From Elusimicrobiota bacterium (lineage in GTDB: Bacteria; Elusimicrobiota; Elusimicrobia; UBA1565; UBA9628): 6,965 bases of DNA. Below, one piece after another: positions 1-6,965 of this stretch. The position numbers and the translations under genes were made by a program. The DNA lies in assembly GCA_016194625.1 (NCBI GenBank), contig JACQBB010000208.1, forward strand, positions 1 to 6,965, given 5' to 3'. Position 1 is the first letter of the stretch; each line of letters opens with the position of its first letter. Under the pieces are notes generated by a model. It made no database searches. It saw only the letters and a program-made list of their open reading frames with translations, and was not told the origin of the DNA.

Positions 1-687
1 GCGCGCCAGCGTCTGCACCATCTCCAGGTAGAAGGTCTGCAGGCTGTCGAACAGGTCCATGTTGTGCAGCATGACCGCCGACTCGCCGGCCAGGATGCCG
101 AGGAACTTCACGTTGTAGTCGCTGAACGCCTCGGCGCCGTCCTTCGCGTGGAGGTTGAGCACGCCGATCGGCTTGCCCTTGACCATCAGCGGGATGGAGA
201 CGAACGGCTCCACGTCGCCGGCGGCGGGCGCGACGTAGCGGGGGTCGCCCGCGGGGTCGGCGATGAAGATCGACTGGCCGGAGGCGAACGCCTTGCCGGC
301 GACGCCCTCGCCGGGCTTCAGGAACAGGCGCTGGGACTTCTCGTTGACCAGGCTGCGCGCGGCGACGATCTGCAGGCAGCCTTCCCTGTCGTCCCACATC
401 ATCACCGAGCCGCGGTCGCACTTCATCAAGCGGCAGGCGCAGTCCAGCACCGCCCGGCCGAACTCCTCGCGCGAGACCGCGCCGGAGTGCGAGACGCCGT
501 GCTCCTGAAGGGACAGCAGCATCGACAGCAGCTCGTCGAGCTTGGTCCAGCCCTCGGGGGCGAGCGCCGGCGCGGCCGTCGGCCCCGTGAGCTCTAAGGA
601 ATAGAGACGGCGCAGGACGAAGACGAGGGCGCCCAGCAGGGCGGAGCAAAGGACGACGAGGACCCAGTCCAGAGGCGAGAGGGACAT
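1..687 (-). CDS. Membrane-anchored GAF-domain signalling protein, C-terminus cut by window edge
   Basis: The visible part is the first 229 residues; the reading frame is still open at the left edge. One hydrophobic segment (about residues 7-26, from DWVLVVLC to LVFV, followed by the basic LRRLY) should anchor the protein in the inner membrane with the rest in the cytoplasm. A short linker with a helical stretch (about 47-65) leads into a GAF domain at about residues 75-207, recognised by the CRLMKCDRGSVMMWD start, the PGEGVAGKAFASGQ core, the IADPAGDPRY strand, and the IPLMVKGKPIGVLNL and FSDYNVKFLGILA segments. GAF domains bind small ligands or mediate dimerisation. The last visible residues, FYLEMVQTLAR, resemble the helix that usually leads into an HD-GYP cyclic-di-GMP phosphodiesterase domain, so that output domain is likely but unseen; a GGDEF or kinase domain is possible. 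The start lies only 14 bases after the helical-repeat gene's stop and has its own TAGATT box. Confidence 0.85.
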   Translation of the reverse strand, partial: MSLSPLDWVLVVLCSALLGALVFVLRRLYSLELTGPTAAPALAPEGWTKLDELLSMLLSLQEHGVSHSGAVSREEFGRAVLDCACRLMKCDRGSVMMWDDREGCLQIVAARSLVNEKSQRLFLKPGEGVAGKAFASGQSIFIADPAGDPRYVAPAAGDVEPFVSIPLMVKGKPIGVLNLHAKDGAEAFSDYNVKFLGILAGESAVMLHNMDLFDSLQTFYLEMVQTLAR

Positions 688-693
688 CGCCTC

Positions 694-699
694 AATCTA
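694..699 (-). promoter_or_regulatory. -10-like hexamer TAGATT before the GAF gene
   Basis: On the minus strand TAGATT is followed by exactly six bases (GAGGCG) and then the ATG at 687. It sits in the 14-base gap after the TAA of the helical-repeat gene, in a locally AT-rich patch. The spacing would place the transcription start at or next to the A of the ATG, giving a leaderless message. No convincing -35 box is visible. The GAGG lying two bases before the ATG is too close to act as a normal ribosome-binding site. Confidence 0.5.
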
Positions 700-701
700 G
701 C

Positions 702-1757
702 TTATTTTTCAACGCCTTTCCCGTCGTTCAGGAGCGCGGCCGTCTTCTCCTCGCCCAGGCGGCCGACCAGCGCGGCGCGCGCGCCCCGGCGGTCGGCTTC
801 GTCGGCGGCGGAGCGGGCGTAGCGCGCGAGCAGGGGGACGGCCTTCTCGCTCGGGGACTGGAACACGGCGGCGGCCCAGATCAGGCGGGAGCGGTCGTCG
901 GCCGCGGCGTCGTGCTCCTTGACCAGGGCTTCGGTCTGCGCGTCGTCGGAGACCGCGCCGACCTTCAGCGCCAGGCGGTGGCGGACCTCCGGGTCGGCCT
1001 TGGGGTCGCGCACCAGCGCGAGCAGTTCGTCGCGGCAGGCGCGGGCCTCCTCGGGCGCGATCGCGGCGCCGGCGGCCTCGACCGCGCGCTCGCCGTCGGC
1101 GGCGTCGGAGGAGACGGCCCAGCGCTTCAGGTCGGGCAGGGTCTTCTTCCAGAAGAAGCGGCCGAGCAGGCGCGCGACGTCCGGGCTCTCGCGCGTCTTC
1201 TCCTTGAGCAGGGGCAGGGCCTTCTCGCCCTCCCACTGCGCCAGCGCCGACAGCGCCTCGTACTGCGTCCACCACGCGTTGCGCTCGCTGAGCGCGTTGA
1301 CCGAGTTCGGGGACGGGGCCTTGAACTTTCGCTGGGCGATCTTGCGCACGAACGGCAGGGCCTGGCGCGAGCGCAGGCGGAACGCGCCGTTGACGCCGAA
1401 CAGCTGGGCTTCCGGCTCGTCCTGCGAGAGGTAGGTGACGAACAAAGGCTCCAGCTGGGGACTGTCGGGCCGCAGGCGCCCCAGCGACTCCATCACCTTG
1501 CGGCGCAGGGTCGGGTCGGGGAAGCGCGAGAACAGGTCGAACAGCGAGGTCACGTCCTGGGCGGAGGTCGGCGCGGTCGCGGCCATCGCGTCCAGCAGCC
1601 GGCCGCGCTCCTTGTCGTCGAGCGCGGCCAGGAAGCGCTCCTTGAGCACGGCGACGCCGGGGGCGCCCACCGGTTCGACGGCGGCGTTCGCCGCCGTCGC
1701 GGGCGGCTCCGAGGCGCGGGCGAGGACGGCGAGGAGCAGGAGGGGGGCGACGGTCAT
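702..1757 (-). CDS. Exported HEAT-like helical-repeat protein of unknown function
   Basis: This 351-residue protein begins with a short hydrophobic segment (LLLLAVLARA, residues 6-15) that looks like a signal peptide with a possible cleavage after ARA at residue 15, although the n-region carries no positive charge. A Pro/Ala-rich linker follows to about residue 35. The remainder is almost entirely alpha-helical, in units of about 30-40 residues resembling degenerate HEAT or armadillo repeats, for example DPTLRRKVMESLGRL (81-95), QLFGVNGAFRLRSRQALPFV (118-137), YEALSALAQWEGEKALPLL (166-184), DPEVRHRLALKVGAV (255-269) and RSRLIWAAAVFQSPSEKAVP (289-308). No catalytic motif is recognisable; such repeats normally serve as protein-binding scaffolds. 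The ATG overlaps the nagZ-like stop as ATGA and is preceded by GGAG at an 8-base spacing, so it is probably translationally coupled to that gene. I do not recognise a specific family. Confidence 0.85.
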   Translation of the reverse strand: MTVAPLLLLAVLARASEPPATAANAAVEPVGAPGVAVLKERFLAALDDKERGRLLDAMAATAPTSAQDVTSLFDLFSRFPDPTLRRKVMESLGRLRPDSPQLEPLFVTYLSQDEPEAQLFGVNGAFRLRSRQALPFVRKIAQRKFKAPSPNSVNALSERNAWWTQYEALSALAQWEGEKALPLLKEKTRESPDVARLLGRFFWKKTLPDLKRWAVSSDAADGERAVEAAGAAIAPEEARACRDELLALVRDPKADPEVRHRLALKVGAVSDDAQTEALVKEHDAAADDRSRLIWAAAVFQSPSEKAVPLLARYARSAADEADRRGARAALVGRLGEEKTAALLNDGKGVEK

Positions 1758-3220
1758 CGGGTGGTCTCCAGGACGCGCGCGAGGGCGGCTTCCAGGCTGA
1801 CGAGCCGGTAGCCCGCGGCGTCGACGACGGTCATGTCCTTCGGGCACAGGTCCAGGTCCCAGGACGAGCGGATCAGGACCGCGACGGTCTTGGCCGCGGC
1901 GGTCTTGGCGATCCGCTTCAGCGCGGCGGCCTGGCCGGGGAAGCGGCGCGCCTCGAAGCACAGGAACACGACGCGCTCGGCCTTCTCCGCGGCCGCCGTC
2001 AGCGCGCCCAGCTCGGTCCTCTCGACGGGCGCGCGGGCGAACGACGCGCAGCGCGCGAGCGTCCGGACCAGCGCCTCGGGGCCGCGCGGGCCGCCCTCGA
2101 AGGTGAAGCGCTCGCGCACTTCCGGGAAGTCGGGGACGACGACGAGCGTGCCGCGGTCGACGGGGACGGGGAGCGGCAGGCGCCCCTTCCGGGCGACGAC
2201 GACCGCGCGCGACGCGACCGCCCGCGCGGTCTTCAGCCCCTCGGCCAGGTCGGGCGCGCGGTCGGCCTTGCGGCGCGCGAGAAGGCGTGTGATGCGCGCG
2301 TCGGCGGCGGCGACCTGCGCCTCGTCGGCGCCGGCCTGCCGCAGCAGGTCCACGGCGTCGCGCATGCCCTGCACGTCGTGGGCGATCATCAGCACGTCGT
2401 GCCCCGCGTCGAGTCCGCGCAGCGTCGCTTCGGCGACCGGCCAGCGCTTGGTGATCGCGCCCATGCACAGGTCGTCGGAGACGATCAGGCCCTTGTAGCC
2501 GAGCTTCTCGCGCAGGAGCCCGCGCACGATCTTCGACGAGAAGGTCGCCGGGACCGAGTCGTAGGCCGGGAAGCGCACGTGCGAGGTCATCACCGCGTCC
2601 ACGCCCGCGCGCGCGGCGGCGGCGAACGGCGCCAGGTGCGCGCGCTCGAACGGTCCGCGGGGCAGCTTGATGGTGGGCAGGTCCACGTGCGCGTCCACGG
2701 TCGCGGCGCCCTTGCCGGGGAAGTGCTTGGCGCAGGCGGACACGCCGTTCTCTTGTAAGCCGCGCGCGAACGCCGCGCCCAGCGTGGAGACCGTCTTCGG
2801 GTCGGGTCCGAAGGACCTGATGCCGATGCCCGGGTTGTACTCCTTCACGGCCACGTCGAGCACCGGGGCCAGGTTCATCCGGACGCCGAGCGGCGCCAGC
2901 TCGCGCGCCATCTGGCGGCCGACCGCGTAGGCCAGGCGCGGGTCGCGCGCGCGGCCGAGCGCGGCGTTGCCCGGGAAAGCCGTCACGCCGGCGGTGAAGC
3001 GCAGGACCCAGCCGCCCTCGTGGTCCACGGCGACGAGCAGGGGCCGCCCGAGCCTCTGCTCCAGCTCGTCGACGAACGCCTTCGTCTGCGCGGGGGAGAC
3101 GATGTTGCGCGCCAGCAGGAGCAGGCCGGTCGCGCCGGTGGACTTGAACAGCGAGACGGTCTCGCGCGCGGGCTTGGTCCCGTACGCGCCGAACATGAAC
3201 AATCGGCCGGGGTCGGTCAC
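1754..3220 (-). CDS. nagZ: Glycoside hydrolase family 3 beta-N-acetylhexosaminidase (NagZ-like)
   Basis: This 488-residue protein has the GH3 (beta/alpha)8 barrel of NagZ, which removes N-acetylglucosamine from anhydromuropeptides during peptidoglycan recycling. Visible landmarks are GRLFMFGAYG (5-14), the substrate-site VDHEGG (65-70), NLAPVLDV (116-123), RSFGPDP (135-141), KHFPGKG (165-171), the loop D176-A-H178 matching the NagZ Asp-His acid/base dyad, and IVSDDL (246-251), in which D249 should be the nucleophile. It is longer than the single-domain enteric form (about 340 residues): residues about 335-488 resemble the GH3 C-terminal domain of two-domain NagZ proteins, with PGQAAALKRIAK and RSSWDLDLCP near its end. 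No signal peptide is seen, so it should be cytoplasmic. The start is GTG, favoured because GRLFM needs upstream residues and because TACACT lies six bases before it; an ATG at residue 9 would cut into the barrel. Substrate is inferred from family motifs. Confidence 0.92.
   Translation of the reverse strand: MTDPGRLFMFGAYGTKPARETVSLFKSTGATGLLLLARNIVSPAQTKAFVDELEQRLGRPLLVAVDHEGGWVLRFTAGVTAFPGNAALGRARDPRLAYAVGRQMARELAPLGVRMNLAPVLDVAVKEYNPGIGIRSFGPDPKTVSTLGAAFARGLQENGVSACAKHFPGKGAATVDAHVDLPTIKLPRGPFERAHLAPFAAAARAGVDAVMTSHVRFPAYDSVPATFSSKIVRGLLREKLGYKGLIVSDDLCMGAITKRWPVAEATLRGLDAGHDVLMIAHDVQGMRDAVDLLRQAGADEAQVAAADARITRLLARRKADRAPDLAEGLKTARAVASRAVVVARKGRLPLPVPVDRGTLVVVPDFPEVRERFTFEGGPRGPEALVRTLARCASFARAPVERTELGALTAAAEKAERVVFLCFEARRFPGQAAALKRIAKTAAAKTVAVLIRSSWDLDLCPKDMTVVDAAGYRLVSLEAALARVLETTR
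1766..1769 (-). promoter_or_regulatory. Shine-Dalgarno GGAG for the helical-repeat gene
   Basis: GGAG lies within the last codons of the nagZ-like gene, eight bases before the ATG of the helical-repeat gene. With the ATGA stop/start overlap at 1754-1757 it supports translational coupling. It is the only start in the window with a well-spaced ribosome-binding site, and it fixes this ATG as the start. Confidence 0.65.
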
Positions 3221-3226
3221 GCCGGG

Positions 3227-3232
3227 AGTGTA
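3227..3232 (-). promoter_or_regulatory. -10-like hexamer TACACT before the nagZ-like gene
   Basis: Read on the minus strand, TGATACACT contains TACACT preceded by TG one base upstream (extended -10 style), then six bases (CCCGGC), then the GTG start at 3220. Transcription would begin at or next to the GTG. No Shine-Dalgarno sequence and no clear -35 box are present. The box lies in the 61-bp gap shared with the divergent cyclic-nucleotide-binding gene. Confidence 0.5.
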
Positions 3233-3269
3233 TCAAAAGAGGACCCTGGCATCCCTCGTCGGGAAGCTG

Positions 3270-3275
3270 TATCGT
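3270..3275 (+). promoter_or_regulatory. -10-like hexamer TATCGT before the cyclic-nucleotide-binding-fold gene
   Basis: TATCGT, preceded directly by TG, is followed by six bases (ATGTCC) and then the ATG at 3282. A weak -35 candidate CTGGCA (3246-3251, four of six consensus matches) lies 18 bases upstream. The geometry predicts transcription from about the ATG at 3282 and argues against the in-frame ATG at 3276, which directly abuts the hexamer. No ribosome-binding site is visible. Confidence 0.45.
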
Positions 3276-3281
3276 ATGTCC

Positions 3282-3713
3282 ATGGACGCCCTGGAGTTTC
3301 TCTACACCCGCGTCCCGCTGTTCGCGGGCCTGACCGAGGAGACGCTGCTGCCGCTGGCCAAGGATTCGGCGCTGAAGGAGTTCGCCGCCGGCCAGACCGT
3401 CGTGCACGCGGGGATGAGCGTCGAGCAGCTGCACGTGGTCGCGGTCGGCTCCGTCGGCATCCACGCGAAGATCCCCAACAAGGGCGTCCAGCAGGTCGCC
3501 GAGCTGAAGTCCGGCGAGGTGTTCGGCGAGGCCTCGATGGTGGAGGGCAGCCTGGCCGGCGCGACCGTCAAGGCCGGCGAGCAGGGCGCCGTGATCCTCC
3601 TCATCCCCGAGGAGCCGTTCCGCGCGCTGTACGCCGGCAGCCCCGAGTTCCACGCCCGCCTGGACGCGCTGATCGCCTCCCGCCGCCCGCCCACCAAGTC
3701 GACCGCGGCTTAG
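3282..3713 (+). CDS. Stand-alone cyclic-nucleotide-binding-fold (Crp/cNMP-type) protein
   Basis: This 143-residue protein consists essentially of one cNMP-binding beta-roll. Typical landmarks are VPLFAGLTEETLLPLA (11-26), the FAAGQTVVHAGM turn (34-45), the LHVVAVGSVGIHA strands (50-62), and GEVFGEASMVEG (78-89), which corresponds to the phosphate-binding cassette. The helix after the roll (about 111-134) is followed by a short basic tail, RRPPTKSTAA. There is no helix-turn-helix, so it is not a complete Crp/Fnr regulator. The Arg that normally contacts the cyclic phosphate is Ala here (A92, in LAGATV where canonical proteins have RAATV-like residues), so classical cAMP or cGMP binding is doubtful. 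It may act as a protein-interaction or regulatory module for an unknown partner. Start 3282 is preferred over 3276 on promoter spacing. It is transcribed divergently from the nagZ-like gene. Confidence 0.85.
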   Translation: MDALEFLYTRVPLFAGLTEETLLPLAKDSALKEFAAGQTVVHAGMSVEQLHVVAVGSVGIHAKIPNKGVQQVAELKSGEVFGEASMVEGSLAGATVKAGEQGAVILLIPEEPFRALYAGSPEFHARLDALIASRRPPTKSTAA

Positions 3714-3751
3714 GCCCGGGTACCGCGTGAATCCTGACTGGAAAAGTCGAC

Positions 3752-3772
3752 TGACGCTGGCGTCACCCTTTT
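3752..3772 (+). terminator. Possible weak terminator or operator: TGACGC-TG-GCGTCA followed by CCCTTTT
   Basis: A near-perfect 14-base palindrome (TGACGCTGGCGTCA, 3752-3765; 12 of 14 positions symmetric) lies 38 bases after the stop of the cyclic-nucleotide-binding-fold gene and is followed by CCC and four T residues. As RNA it would form a five-base-pair stem with a CTGG loop, which is short for an intrinsic terminator and has only a short U-tract. A second small inverted repeat, GACT-GGAAA-AGTC, lies just upstream at 3736-3748. The symmetry and the position about 65 bases before the alpha-2-macroglobulin start also suit a regulator-binding site. I cannot decide between the two. Confidence 0.3.
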
Positions 3773-3812
3773 GCCCGCGGGAGCTCGATCCGAGGTAAGC
3801 CCGGGGTTCTTT

Positions 3813-3818
3813 AAGGAG
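3813..3818 (+). promoter_or_regulatory. AAGGAG, Shine-Dalgarno-like but 12 bases from the start
   Basis: AAGGAG is a strong anti-Shine-Dalgarno match, but it lies 12 bases before the ATG at 3831, longer than the usual 5-9. If transcription starts from the adjacent TAGAAT box it would not be in the mRNA at all. It could serve a longer transcript reading in from upstream, or be coincidence. Confidence 0.3.
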
Positions 3819-3824
3819 TAGAAT
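3819..3824 (+). promoter_or_regulatory. -10-like hexamer TAGAAT before the alpha-2-macroglobulin gene
   Basis: TAGAAT matches the sigma-70 -10 consensus at five of six positions and is followed by six bases (CGGCGT) and the ATG at 3831. It is the best -10 match of the four boxes in this window and has the same spacing as the others. No good -35 box is seen at 16-18 bases upstream (TAAGCC at 17 bases is poor). Confidence 0.55.
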
Positions 3825-3830
3825 CGGCGT

Positions 3831-6800
3831 ATGAGCGCCCTTCTCCTCCTCCTCTCCGTCGCGGCGTCGGCCGCGGCCCCGTCGGTCAGCATCCTCTCCG
3901 CGTCGCCCGCCGGCCCCGCCTCGGCGGGTGCCGAGCCCGAGGCGGTCGTCGTCGTGTTCGACCAGCCGATGGTCGCGCTGGCCTCGCCCGCGGACATGGG
4001 GCGCGCGTGCCCGCTCAAACTCTCGCCGTCGGTGGCCGGGCGCTGCCGCTGGCGCGGCACGCAGACGCTCGCCTTCGAGCCGGAGAGGCCCCTGCCGCCC
4101 GCGGCGTCGTTCCGCGCGACCGTCCCGGCCGGCACGCGCTCGGCGGTGACCGGCGCCGCGCTGGCCGCGGAGCGCTCGTGGACCTTCGAGACGCGGCGGC
4201 CGCAGCTGCTCGACAGCCGGCCCCAGGACGGCGACCGCTGGATCGCGCCCGACGCGACGCTGTTCCTGCACTTCGACATGACGATGGACCCCAAGCGCGC
4301 GCGCGGCGCGGTCGTCCTGCGCGAGGCGGCGCTCGACTCGGCCGAGCCCGGCGAGGAGCTGGCCGCCGGCGTGCGCCGCGCGACGCCCGAGGAGGTCAAG
4401 GCGGCGTGGCCGTGGAGCTGGGGCGAGGCGGTGCCGTCGTCGGCGACGGTGCTGGCGGTGAAGCCGTCGCGCCCCCTGCGCCGCGACCGCGCGTACCGCC
4501 TGACGCTGAAGGCGGACCTGCGCGCCGCCGACGGCGAACTGGGGCTGTCGTCGGAGCGGACGGTCCGTTTCGAGGCGCCGTACTCCTTCAAGCTCGTGGA
4601 CGGCCCCGGGCGCGCGTGCCTGCCGCGCGGCTACGCGGTGTCCTTCACGAACCCGGTCGTCCACGGCGAGCTGGTCGCGCACCTGCGCGTCGAGGGCTCG
4701 ACGCGGAGCTGGGACGCGGAGGGCCGGCGCTCGCGCGCCCTCGGCGAGCGCGACCCGGAGCGGCGCCGGGTGGCCTTCCACCTGGGCGACCTGGGGTTCG
4801 AGCCCGACCGCTCGTACACGCTCGTCGTCTCGTCGGACCTCGCCGACGCGTTCGGACAGCCGCTCGGCGCCGAGGTCCGCGTGCCGTTCTCCAACGACGG
4901 GCTCTGCCCGCGGCTGAGCATGCCCCAGCAGTTCGGCGTGCTGGAGCAGGGCCTGCCCGCGCGCCATCCGGTCACCGCGGTCAACGTGCCGACGGCGCCG
5001 CTGCGCAAGGGCGTGGTTGCCGACGAAGCTTTCATCCCGTTCTACCGCGGCATCTCCTGGGGCTGCCGCGACCGGCTCGCCTTCGACGCGCCCGAGAAGC
5101 CGTGGGACCTGGGCCTGCCGCGCAACCGCTCGCTGCGCACCTTCGTGGACCTGGCCCCGGCGTTCGCGGCCGCGCGCCCGCCGCGCTCCGGCGGCCTGGC
5201 CGCCGTCGAGGTGACGGGGCCGGGCGACTGCCGCCAGAAGGCGGTGCTCGACGTGACGCGCGTCGGCCTTCATCTCAAATCCTCGCCCGACTCCACCTTG
5301 GTGTGGGCGACCTACCTGAAGTCCGCCGCGCCCGCCGCGGGCGTGCCCGTCGAGCTGAGGAGCGACGACAACAAGGTCTTGTGGCGCGGCGTCACCAACC
5401 GCGACGGCCTGGCCGACGCGCCGGGCTGGAAAGGCCTCGGGCTGACGGACTGGAAGCGCTGGTCCCGCCCGAACCTGTGGGCGTTCGCCAAGGACCCGAA
5501 GGGGACGGCGGTGCTGTCGCTCGATTGGCGCGGCGGCGTGGAGCCGTGGCGCTTCGACGTGATGAGCGACTGGGCGCCGCGCCCGCGGCACTACCGCGTG
5601 TCGCTGTTCACCGAGCGCGGCGTGTACCGCTCCGGCGAGACCGTGCGCGTGAAGGCGATCGCGCGCAAGCTGGAGGGCGGCGACTGGCGCGCGCTCGGCG
5701 CGGGCGACCCGCGCACTCTGGTCCTCACCGTGAAGGACCCGCGCGGCGCCGAGGTCGTGAGGACCACGGCGACGCTGTCGGACCTGTCGTCGCTGGACGC
5801 GTCGTTCGCGCTGCGCGACTCCGCTCCGACCGGGCATTGGACCGTGCGCCTGCGCGAGCCGGGGGCGAAGGACGACGACCTGGTGCGCCCCGCCGTCGAT
5901 GGCGAGGAGGAGGGCGGCGGCGAGGACGAGGCGCCGGTCACGCCGAACGGCGAGGTCCTGCTCAACGCCGCGAAGACCTTCCGCGTGGAGGCCTTCAAGC
6001 CGGCCGCGTTCGAGGTGAAGGCGGTCCCGGCCGCGCCGTCGTGGCTGGCCGGCGACGCCTACCAGGCGTCGATCGAGGGCTGGTGGCTGTTCGGCGCGCC
6101 GATGGCCGGCGAGAAGGCCGCGTGGTCCCTGCGCCTGGAGCCGTCGGCCTACGAGCCGCCGGGCTGGCCGGGCTTCTCGTTCGCGCCGGCGTGGCGCAAG
6201 CGCCGCGCGGAGACCGGCCGCCTGCTGGCCTCCGGGGAGGCCGGGCTCGACGCCAAGGGCCGCGCGTCCGCGACCGCCGTCCTGGACCCGGGCGACGCGC
6301 TGGGGCCGCTGAACGCGGCGTTCGAGGCGTCGGTGGTCAGCCCCGAACGCCAGCGCCTGTTCGCGCGCGCCTCCGGCGTCGTGCACCGCGCCGACCTGTA
6401 TTATGGGGTGAAGTCCGAGTCGAACTTCATCGAGTTGGGCCAGCGCTGGGACGCGGCCGCGGCGGCGGTGCGGCCCGACGGCCGGCGCGCGGAGACGCTG
6501 GGCGCGTCGTGGAGCCTGCGCCGCCGCGAGTGGCTGAGCGTGGAGCGCGCCGGCGTGGCCGGGCGCCTGGAGTGGGTCAGCGAGGAGCGCGAGACTTTGG
6601 TCTCCTCGGGGACCTTCGCGGCGTCGGCGTCCACCTGGACCTGGAGCGCGACGCCGGACAAGCCCGGCGAGTACGAGTTCTCGCTGTCGGGCCGCGACGA
6701 GAAGGGCCGCCCCGCCGAGACCGTGCGCGAGTTCAACGTCGCCGGGGCCGGCGAGGCGTGGTGGAAGCGCAAGGACGACGACATCGTCGAGATCGTCGCC

Positions 6801-6965
6801 GACAAGGATTCTTATAAGCCCGGCGAGACGGCGCGCCTGCTGGTGAAGTCGCCGTACGAGAAGGCGAGCGCGCTGGTCACCGTCGAGCGCGAGGGCGTGA
6901 TCGCGCGCTGGACGCAGACGCTCAAGGGCGGCGCGTCGCTGGTGCGCGTGCCGCTGGACGACCGC
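3831..6965 (+). CDS. Bacterial alpha-2-macroglobulin family protein (periplasmic protease trap), C-terminus cut by window edge
   Basis: The frame is open for 1,045 codons to the right edge. A signal peptide is clear (SALLLLLSVAASAAAP, probable cleavage after residue 14-16); no lipobox Cys is present, so this looks periplasmic or secreted rather than a YfhM-type lipoprotein. Residues about 17-355 hold Ig-like N-terminal domains, with FDQPM at 43-47 and a similar FDMTMDP in the second. About 474-585 (DVTRVGLHLKSSPDSTLVWA onward) matches the bacterial macroglobulin-domain pattern. The hallmark TERGVYRSGETVRVKA is centred on Y599, and a related DSYKPGETARLLVKSPYE on Y995. An acidic low-complexity loop lies at 690-702. 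Six Cys (60, 72, 263, 359, 412, 467) are confined to the first 470 residues. These proteins trap proteases, usually through a thioester (CxEQ) and bait region; those parts would lie beyond the window, so thioester status is unknown. In many bacteria pbpC follows this gene. Confidence 0.9.
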   Translation, partial: MSALLLLLSVAASAAAPSVSILSASPAGPASAGAEPEAVVVVFDQPMVALASPADMGRACPLKLSPSVAGRCRWRGTQTLAFEPERPLPPAASFRATVPAGTRSAVTGAALAAERSWTFETRRPQLLDSRPQDGDRWIAPDATLFLHFDMTMDPKRARGAVVLREAALDSAEPGEELAAGVRRATPEEVKAAWPWSWGEAVPSSATVLAVKPSRPLRRDRAYRLTLKADLRAADGELGLSSERTVRFEAPYSFKLVDGPGRACLPRGYAVSFTNPVVHGELVAHLRVEGSTRSWDAEGRRSRALGERDPERRRVAFHLGDLGFEPDRSYTLVVSSDLADAFGQPLGAEVRVPFSNDGLCPRLSMPQQFGVLEQGLPARHPVTAVNVPTAPLRKGVVADEAFIPFYRGISWGCRDRLAFDAPEKPWDLGLPRNRSLRTFVDLAPAFAAARPPRSGGLAAVEVTGPGDCRQKAVLDVTRVGLHLKSSPDSTLVWATYLKSAAPAAGVPVELRSDDNKVLWRGVTNRDGLADAPGWKGLGLTDWKRWSRPNLWAFAKDPKGTAVLSLDWRGGVEPWRFDVMSDWAPRPRHYRVSLFTERGVYRSGETVRVKAIARKLEGGDWRALGAGDPRTLVLTVKDPRGAEVVRTTATLSDLSSLDASFALRDSAPTGHWTVRLREPGAKDDDLVRPAVDGEEEGGGEDEAPVTPNGEVLLNAAKTFRVEAFKPAAFEVKAVPAAPSWLAGDAYQASIEGWWLFGAPMAGEKAAWSLRLEPSAYEPPGWPGFSFAPAWRKRRAETGRLLASGEAGLDAKGRASATAVLDPGDALGPLNAAFEASVVSPERQRLFARASGVVHRADLYYGVKSESNFIELGQRWDAAAAAVRPDGRRAETLGASWSLRRREWLSVERAGVAGRLEWVSEERETLVSSGTFAASASTWTWSATPDKPGEYEFSLSGRDEKGRPAETVREFNVAGAGEAWWKRKDDDIVEIVADKDSYKPGETARLLVKSPYEKASALVTVEREGVIARWTQTLKGGASLVRVPLDDR

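What the first reader, a model, noticed from the sequence alone, without database searches (positions are those of the whole stretch)
685..3833. All four leading genes carry TANNNT exactly six bases before the start codon: predicted leaderless transcription
TAGATT-N6-ATG (694-699), TACACT-N6-GTG (3227-3232), TATCGT-N6-ATG (3270-3275) and TAGAAT-N6-ATG (3819-3824) share identical spacing on both strands. With A and T near 15% each, TANNNT is expected about once in 300 positions, so the same spacing four times is unlikely by chance, although two of the starts had alternatives and intergenic DNA is somewhat richer in AT. A -10 box at this distance puts the transcript start on the start codon. The same arrangement is known for leaderless genes in Deinococcus and some other bacteria. 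It suggests that leaderless initiation is a routine mode in this organism, and it would help correct start-codon calls genome-wide.
Basis: partly seen in the sequence, partly recalled or inferred. Interest (0 to 1): 0.72.

Follow-up and report, generated by a model that had tools for sequence, protein, structure and literature searches.

The report
Leaderless gene starts in Elusimicrobiota
In this group of uncultured bacteria many genes appear to be transcribed starting right at the start codon, with no leader in front; the mechanism is known from other bacteria such as Deinococcus, but I found no report of it for this lineage.

Summary
The window comes from a GC-rich member of Elusimicrobiota. 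In samples of five relatives' genomes, 80 of 601 first-of-operon genes carry TANNNT exactly 6 bases before the start (7.8 expected), against 9 of 669 operon-internal genes (0.9 expected). A D. deserti plasmid shows the same peak; E. coli and C. necator do not. The box is often an extended -10 (TG-n-TAnnnT). Upstream of nagZ, TTTGnTAnACT is invariant in 14 sequences while the six bases after it drift, and in seven relatives box and start codon have moved together. Leaderless or nearly leaderless transcription is the best explanation. Corrections: the GAF gene is not a leading gene; the start at 3831 has weaker support and an AAGGAG upstream; a low-GC Elusimicrobiota sample shows no peak, so this is not shown phylum-wide. 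No transcript ends were mapped. Known mechanism, apparently unreported lineage.

The parts
694..699 (-). TAGATT, predicted -10 box of the GAF gene, 6 bases before ATG 687-685; G two bases before it, but no TG
   Evidence: ortholog rows: gap 6 in 5, gap 7 in 5, gap 8 in 1, gap 10 in 1, none in 4, of 16
1..687 (-). GAF-domain gene (runs off the window); 14 bp behind the HEAT gene, so an internal promoter if real
   Evidence: Pfam GAF_2 5e-19; position
702..1757 (-). HEAT-repeat gene, overlaps nagZ by 4 bp; no TANNNT at gap 6
   Evidence: Pfam HEAT_2 1e-9
3227..3235 (-). TGATACACT, extended -10 box (TG 3235-3234, hexamer TACACT 3232-3227) of nagZ, 6 bases before GTG 3220-3218
   Evidence: TTTGnTAnACT invariant in 13 relatives plus the window
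1754..3220 (-). nagZ-like gene, glycosyl hydrolase family 3
   Evidence: Pfam Glyco_hydro_3 5e-77
3270..3275 (+). TATCGT, predicted -10 box of the cNMP-binding gene, 6 bases before ATG 3282
   Evidence: gap 6 in 7 of 9 ortholog rows, gap 8 in 1, gap 10 in 1
3282..3713 (+). cNMP-binding-domain gene, divergent from nagZ; 61 bp between the two start codons
   Evidence: Pfam cNMP_binding 5e-14 (read from 3276)
3819..3824 (+). TAGAAT, predicted -10 box of the macroglobulin gene, 6 bases before ATG 3831; SD-like AAGGAG at 3813-3818 just before it
   Evidence: ortholog rows: gap 7 in 1, gap 5 in 1, none in 2, of 4
3831..6965 (+). alpha-2-macroglobulin-like gene (runs off the window)
   Evidence: Pfam MG2 3e-18, bMG3 5e-17

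Best explanation
The TANNNT hexamers are sigma-70-type -10 boxes, often of the extended kind (TG-n-TAnnnT), placed so that RNA polymerase starts on, or within about a base of, the first base of the start codon. The mRNA then begins with AUG or GUG and is translated without a 5' leader. In GC-rich Elusimicrobiota this is a routine mode for first-of-operon genes: the strict motif is in excess in about a fifth of them. Operon-internal genes mostly lack it, and many carry a Shine-Dalgarno word; the 16S anti-SD is intact. Shown by sequence: motif, spacing, operon position, conservation. Inferred: where transcripts start, leaderless translation, recognition by the main sigma factor.
For: Peak at gap 6 in 80 of 601 first genes (7.84 expected per position) and 44 at gap 7; internal genes 9 of 669 (0.90); seen in each of the five samples: 37/216, 12/74, 7/60, 8/120, 16/131. 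Positive control D. deserti plasmid 9 of 99 (0.71); negative controls E. coli 0 of 71 (1.77) and C. necator 1 of 95 (1.10). TG before the box in 47 of 124 gap-6/7 cases against 37 of 211 for TANNNT at gaps 15-39. nagZ: TTTGnTAnACT invariant in 14 sequences while the next six bases drift; 23 of 33 ortholog rows have the box 5-7 bases before a start, and in seven of these the start is shifted and the box with it. The ten rows without it are all operon-internal, 22 of the 23 with it are divergent or at least 35 bp from a neighbour. TTG starts in 2 of 167 motif-bearing first genes against 62 of 551 others.
Against: No transcript data. The own genome was not examined. The low rate of Shine-Dalgarno words in motif-bearing genes is no independent support: masking the hexamer's place in other genes lowers their rate equally (53 of 551 against 15 of 167). 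The TTG difference may partly reflect miscalled starts. Internal genes also show a tenfold excess, though of about 1% of genes only. L013 nagZ has the box although it overlaps its neighbour. The start at 3831 has AAGGAG upstream, and 2 of its 4 ortholog rows lack the box. The low-GC Elusimicrobiota sample shows no peak, 2 of 146 against 4.52.
Confidence: 0.88

Rival explanations
1. The -10 boxes are real, but polymerase starts a few bases off, giving very short leaders (1-4 bases) rather than strictly leaderless mRNA.
For: 44 of 601 first genes have gap 7 and 15 have gap 8; L002 has gap 8 at the cNMP-binding gene.
Against: The mode is gap 6, where the usual start about 7 bases below the box (recalled, from no call) falls on the first base of the codon.
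Confidence: 0.08
2. TANNNT is a translation signal or an unpaired AT-rich patch, not a promoter.
For: It sits at a fixed distance from the start codon.
Against: Nearly absent from operon-internal genes, which need translation signals too; carries the TG of extended -10 promoters and a weak T excess 23 bases before the hexamer (47 of 113 and 28 of 54 against 21% background).
Confidence: 0.03
3. Chance matches helped by a free choice of starts.
For: Two starts in the window had alternatives, and upstream DNA is richer in AT.
Against: Background 1.3% per position; conservation in orthologs; the peak in relatives with starts chosen blind to upstream sequence. Chance remains possible for single sites, above all at 3831.
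Confidence: 0.01

Closest known systems
-10-adjacent leaderless genes of Deinococcus-Thermus (PMC12340547, passages and one section; D. deserti plasmid as control here)
   Same: TANNNT at the same distance from the start, with a separate class of SD-type genes; same peak with the same gene caller.
   Different: Different phylum; here TG before the box is frequent (12 and 7 cases at gaps 6 and 7 in 216 first genes of G004, against 1 and 0 in 99 of D. deserti). In that paper expression was tested; here it was not.
TA-like leaderless signals in bacteria, Zheng et al. 2011 (PMC3160421, passages and two sections)
   Same: TAnnnT about 12 bases upstream in high-GC groups.
   Different: Elusimicrobia are not named in its main text. 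It reports the TG peak in several low-GC genomes such as Lactococcus; here TG goes with a GC-rich genome.
Extended -10 sigma-70 promoters (recalled, from no call)
   Same: TG one base before the hexamer, weak -35 signal.
   Different: Here placed at the start codon rather than above a leader.

Membership tests
Bacterial leaderless genes (TA-like type) | TANNNT about 12 bases (first T) before the start codon | tested here: met
   four of four in the window; 80 of 601 first genes at gap 6 in relatives, 7.84 expected
Bacterial leaderless genes (TA-like type) | found at first-of-transcript genes | tested here: met
   9 of 669 internal genes at gap 6, 1 of 413 overlapping genes at gap 6-7, 89 of 323 divergent genes at gap 6-7; in the window GAF is an exception by position
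Bacterial leaderless genes (TA-like type) | no Shine-Dalgarno word before the start | tested here: inconclusive
   4 of 167 against 177 of 551, but the masking control shows that the hexamer occupies the place; AAGGAG at 3813-3818 before one window gene
Bacterial leaderless genes (TA-like type) | mapped transcript 5' end on the start codon | not testable with these tools
   no RNA data
Extended -10 promoter | TG one base before the hexamer | tested here: met
   as a group: 47 of 124 against 37 of 211; in the window nagZ has TG, GAF only the G, the other two neither
Extended -10 promoter | activity independent of a -35 element | not testable with these tools
   only a weak T excess 23 bases before the hexamer was seen

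The most novel reading that the evidence does not exclude
GC-rich Elusimicrobiota are a further bacterial lineage in which leaderless transcription from extended -10 boxes is a standard way to begin an operon, while low-GC members of the same phylum lack it, so that the phylum holds a switch in how translation starts.
Probability: 0.5. Interest if true: 0.55.

Novelty: new member of a known kind. Interest (0 to 1): 0.45.

Why it matters
It extends routine leaderless initiation to an uncultured lineage where my searches found no report of it. It gives a rule for correcting start codons there: a codon-only caller put the nagZ start 8 codons too far downstream in L003, L005, L006, L008 and L009, where motif and conservation agree on the upstream start. 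If low-GC members truly lack it, the phylum becomes a natural comparison for how a leaderless habit is gained or lost.

Tried and rejected
Chance: rejected. Depletion of Shine-Dalgarno words as independent evidence: dropped after the masking control. First version of the gene caller: on the 71%-GC sample G020 it gave 0 of 132 heads at gap 6 and far too many head genes. I changed its training to favour ORFs with GC-rich third positions, after seeing that result, and reran all sets (13 of 76 for G020 with L022; G004 counts unchanged). Pairing of orthologous first genes between G004 and other samples gave only 2 pairs, uninformative. Rokubacteria loci: 17 of 189 heads at gap 6 against 1.10, but the loci all surround one nagZ relative and 11 of the 23 gap-6/7 cases are that gene, so this is a lead only. 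The locus sets of Elusimicrobia share that fault; the main counts therefore use single-genome samples without the nagZ loci. Caller accuracy: 32 of 41 annotated E. coli starts exact, 7 different, 2 missed.

Rows dropped: genes within 60 bases of a stretch's edge, genes open at an edge, upstream stretches with N, and genes without a called neighbour (46 of 1471 in the single-genome pool; 53 of 1970 in the wider pool); genes 20-59 bp behind a same-strand gene were kept apart (21 of 155 at gap 6, 1.23 expected). In one search, hits under 45% identity (35% for the macroglobulin gene), alignments beginning after query residue 75, matches too near an edge, and duplicate sequences were left out. L022 (gap 7) was left out of the column count.

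Full report
Observation. The four hexamers, six-base spacers and start codons are exactly as described. The genes are a GAF-domain protein, a family-3 glycosyl hydrolase (nagZ-like), a cNMP-binding-domain protein and an alpha-2-macroglobulin-like protein, with a HEAT-repeat gene between the first two. One correction: the GAF gene lies 14 bp behind the HEAT gene on the same strand, so it is not a leading gene by position. The HEAT gene overlaps nagZ by 4 bp and has no TANNNT at this place.

Origin. The closest loci by the glycosyl hydrolase are mostly labelled Elusimicrobia (two are labelled only 'bacterium'), 72-84% identical in protein over the best segment (L001-L011, L019, L020, L022). No whole genome is held for the window, so relatives were used.

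Genome-level test. I wrote a gene caller that chooses starts by codon usage and start-codon type only. In samples of five genomes (G004, G011, G015, G019, G020), 80 of 601 first-of-operon genes have TANNNT at gap 6 and 44 at gap 7, against 7.84 expected per position; operon-internal genes have 9 of 669 at gap 6 against 0.90. The gap-6 counts by genome are 37/216, 8/120, 16/131, 7/60 and 12/74. At gaps 6-7 the rate rises from 1 of 413 in overlapping same-strand genes, over 10 of 87 at 10-19 bp (the class of the GAF gene), to 89 of 323 in divergent genes. Over gaps 5-8 there are 153 cases against 31.4 expected, an excess of about a fifth of first genes. I take this as a lower bound, since the caller placed 32 of 41 annotated E. 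coli starts exactly. The same caller shows the peak in a D. deserti plasmid (9 of 99, 0.71 expected) and not in E. coli (0 of 71, 1.77) or C. necator (1 of 95, 1.10). A 38%-GC Elusimicrobiota sample (G024 with L034 and L039) shows none: 2 of 146 against 4.52. I call this not detected rather than absent, because start calls there were not checked.

Promoter anatomy. In the wider Elusimicrobiota pool the base two before the hexamer is G in 82 of 113 gap-6 and 37 of 54 gap-7 cases (background 29%), and the base three before it is T in 67 and 33 (background 21%): an extended -10. A weak T excess lies 23 bases before the hexamer (47 of 113 and 28 of 54). The 16S 3' end reads CCTCCTTT in L081, L082, L083, L085 and L089 and CCTCCTTA in L084, and 45% of 958 internal genes have an SD-like word, so Shine-Dalgarno initiation coexists.

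Conservation. nagZ: TTTGnTAnACT is invariant in 13 relatives plus the window, followed by six mostly poorly conserved bases and a first codon base that is always A or G. Of 33 nagZ rows, 20 have gap 6, two gap 7, one gap 5 and ten none. The ten without the box lie within 9 bp of, or overlap, a same-strand gene; 22 of the 23 with it are divergent or at least 35 bp away, L013 being the exception (for L023 and L025 I moved the caller's start by hand to the conserved start, and L003 stands for the row printed as L182). In L012, L015, L016, L018, L032 (gap 6), L024 (gap 7) and L028 (gap 5) the start lies elsewhere relative to the window protein and the box is shifted with it; the blind caller chose that start in five of these seven, not in L015 and L016. 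cNMP-binding gene: gap 6 in 7 of 9 rows, 8 in one, 10 in one; five of the seven also have an ATG two codons upstream, as the window has. GAF: gap 6 in 5, 7 in 5, 8 in 1, 10 in 1, none in 4, of 16. Macroglobulin gene: gap 7 in 1, gap 5 in 1, none in 2, of 4 (all). In the window 61 bp separate the start codons of nagZ and the cNMP-binding gene, so two apparently leaderless promoters sit back to back.

What does not help. Motif-bearing first genes rarely have an SD word (4 of 167 against 177 of 551), but the masking control shows that the hexamer simply takes the place. TTG starts are rare in them (2 of 167 against 62 of 551), as expected if transcripts begin with a purine, but miscalled starts may contribute.

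Literature. Zheng et al. 2011 (PMC3160421; passages and two sections) found leaderless genes in 207 of 953 bacterial genomes; the main text does not name Elusimicrobia, and its additional files were not seen. PMC12340547 (2025; passages and one section) tested -10-adjacent leaderless genes in Deinococcus and scanned the bacterial domain; its main text does not name Elusimicrobia and its figures were not seen. Searches for leaderless with Elusimicrobi gave 2 papers: of PMC10783764 I saw passages, where Elusimicrobia appear by anti-SD type; of the other only the listing. Listings only: leaderless with TANNNT (35 papers, 20 listed), Elusimicrobi with Shine-Dalgarno and promoter (3), two searches on leaderless genes in phyla and uncultured genomes, GeneMarkS-2 with leaderless and phylum (14), Elusimicrobium minutum with transcription start site (1), leaderless with Rokubacteria (0) and with Methylomirabilota (1). 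None of what I saw reports leaderless genes in these groups; the library lacks most subscription papers, so earlier mention is possible.

Verdict. It is a known mechanism in what seems an unreported lineage; mapped transcript ends are missing.

Noticed in passing
Rokubacteria loci (18 of L036-L077), nagZ-like genes, for example L059 9976-11494: TATAAT-like boxes 6-7 bases before GTG or ATG starts are frequent here too (17 of 189 heads at gap 6, 1.10 expected), which hints at leaderless genes in Rokubacteria; 11 of the 23 gap-6/7 cases are the same nagZ relative, so the count is not independent.
   Followed up: partly
G024 stretches L253-L272 with L034 and L039: A 38%-GC Elusimicrobiota sample shows no TANNNT peak (2 of 146 against 4.52), unlike the GC-rich members.
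   Followed up: partly
L038, L043, L047, L053, L054, L055, L060, L063, L064: In these Deltaproteobacteria-labelled loci TANNNT has odd peaks at gap 8 (9 of 91 heads) and gap 13 (8 of 91), against 1.16 expected; perhaps repeated orthologs.
   Followed up: no
window 3221-3281: Two divergent, apparently leaderless genes share a 61-bp spacer; in several relatives (for example L003-L006) the two boxes, TTTGTTAnACT and TTTGTTAAnGT, are near mirror images.
   Followed up: partly
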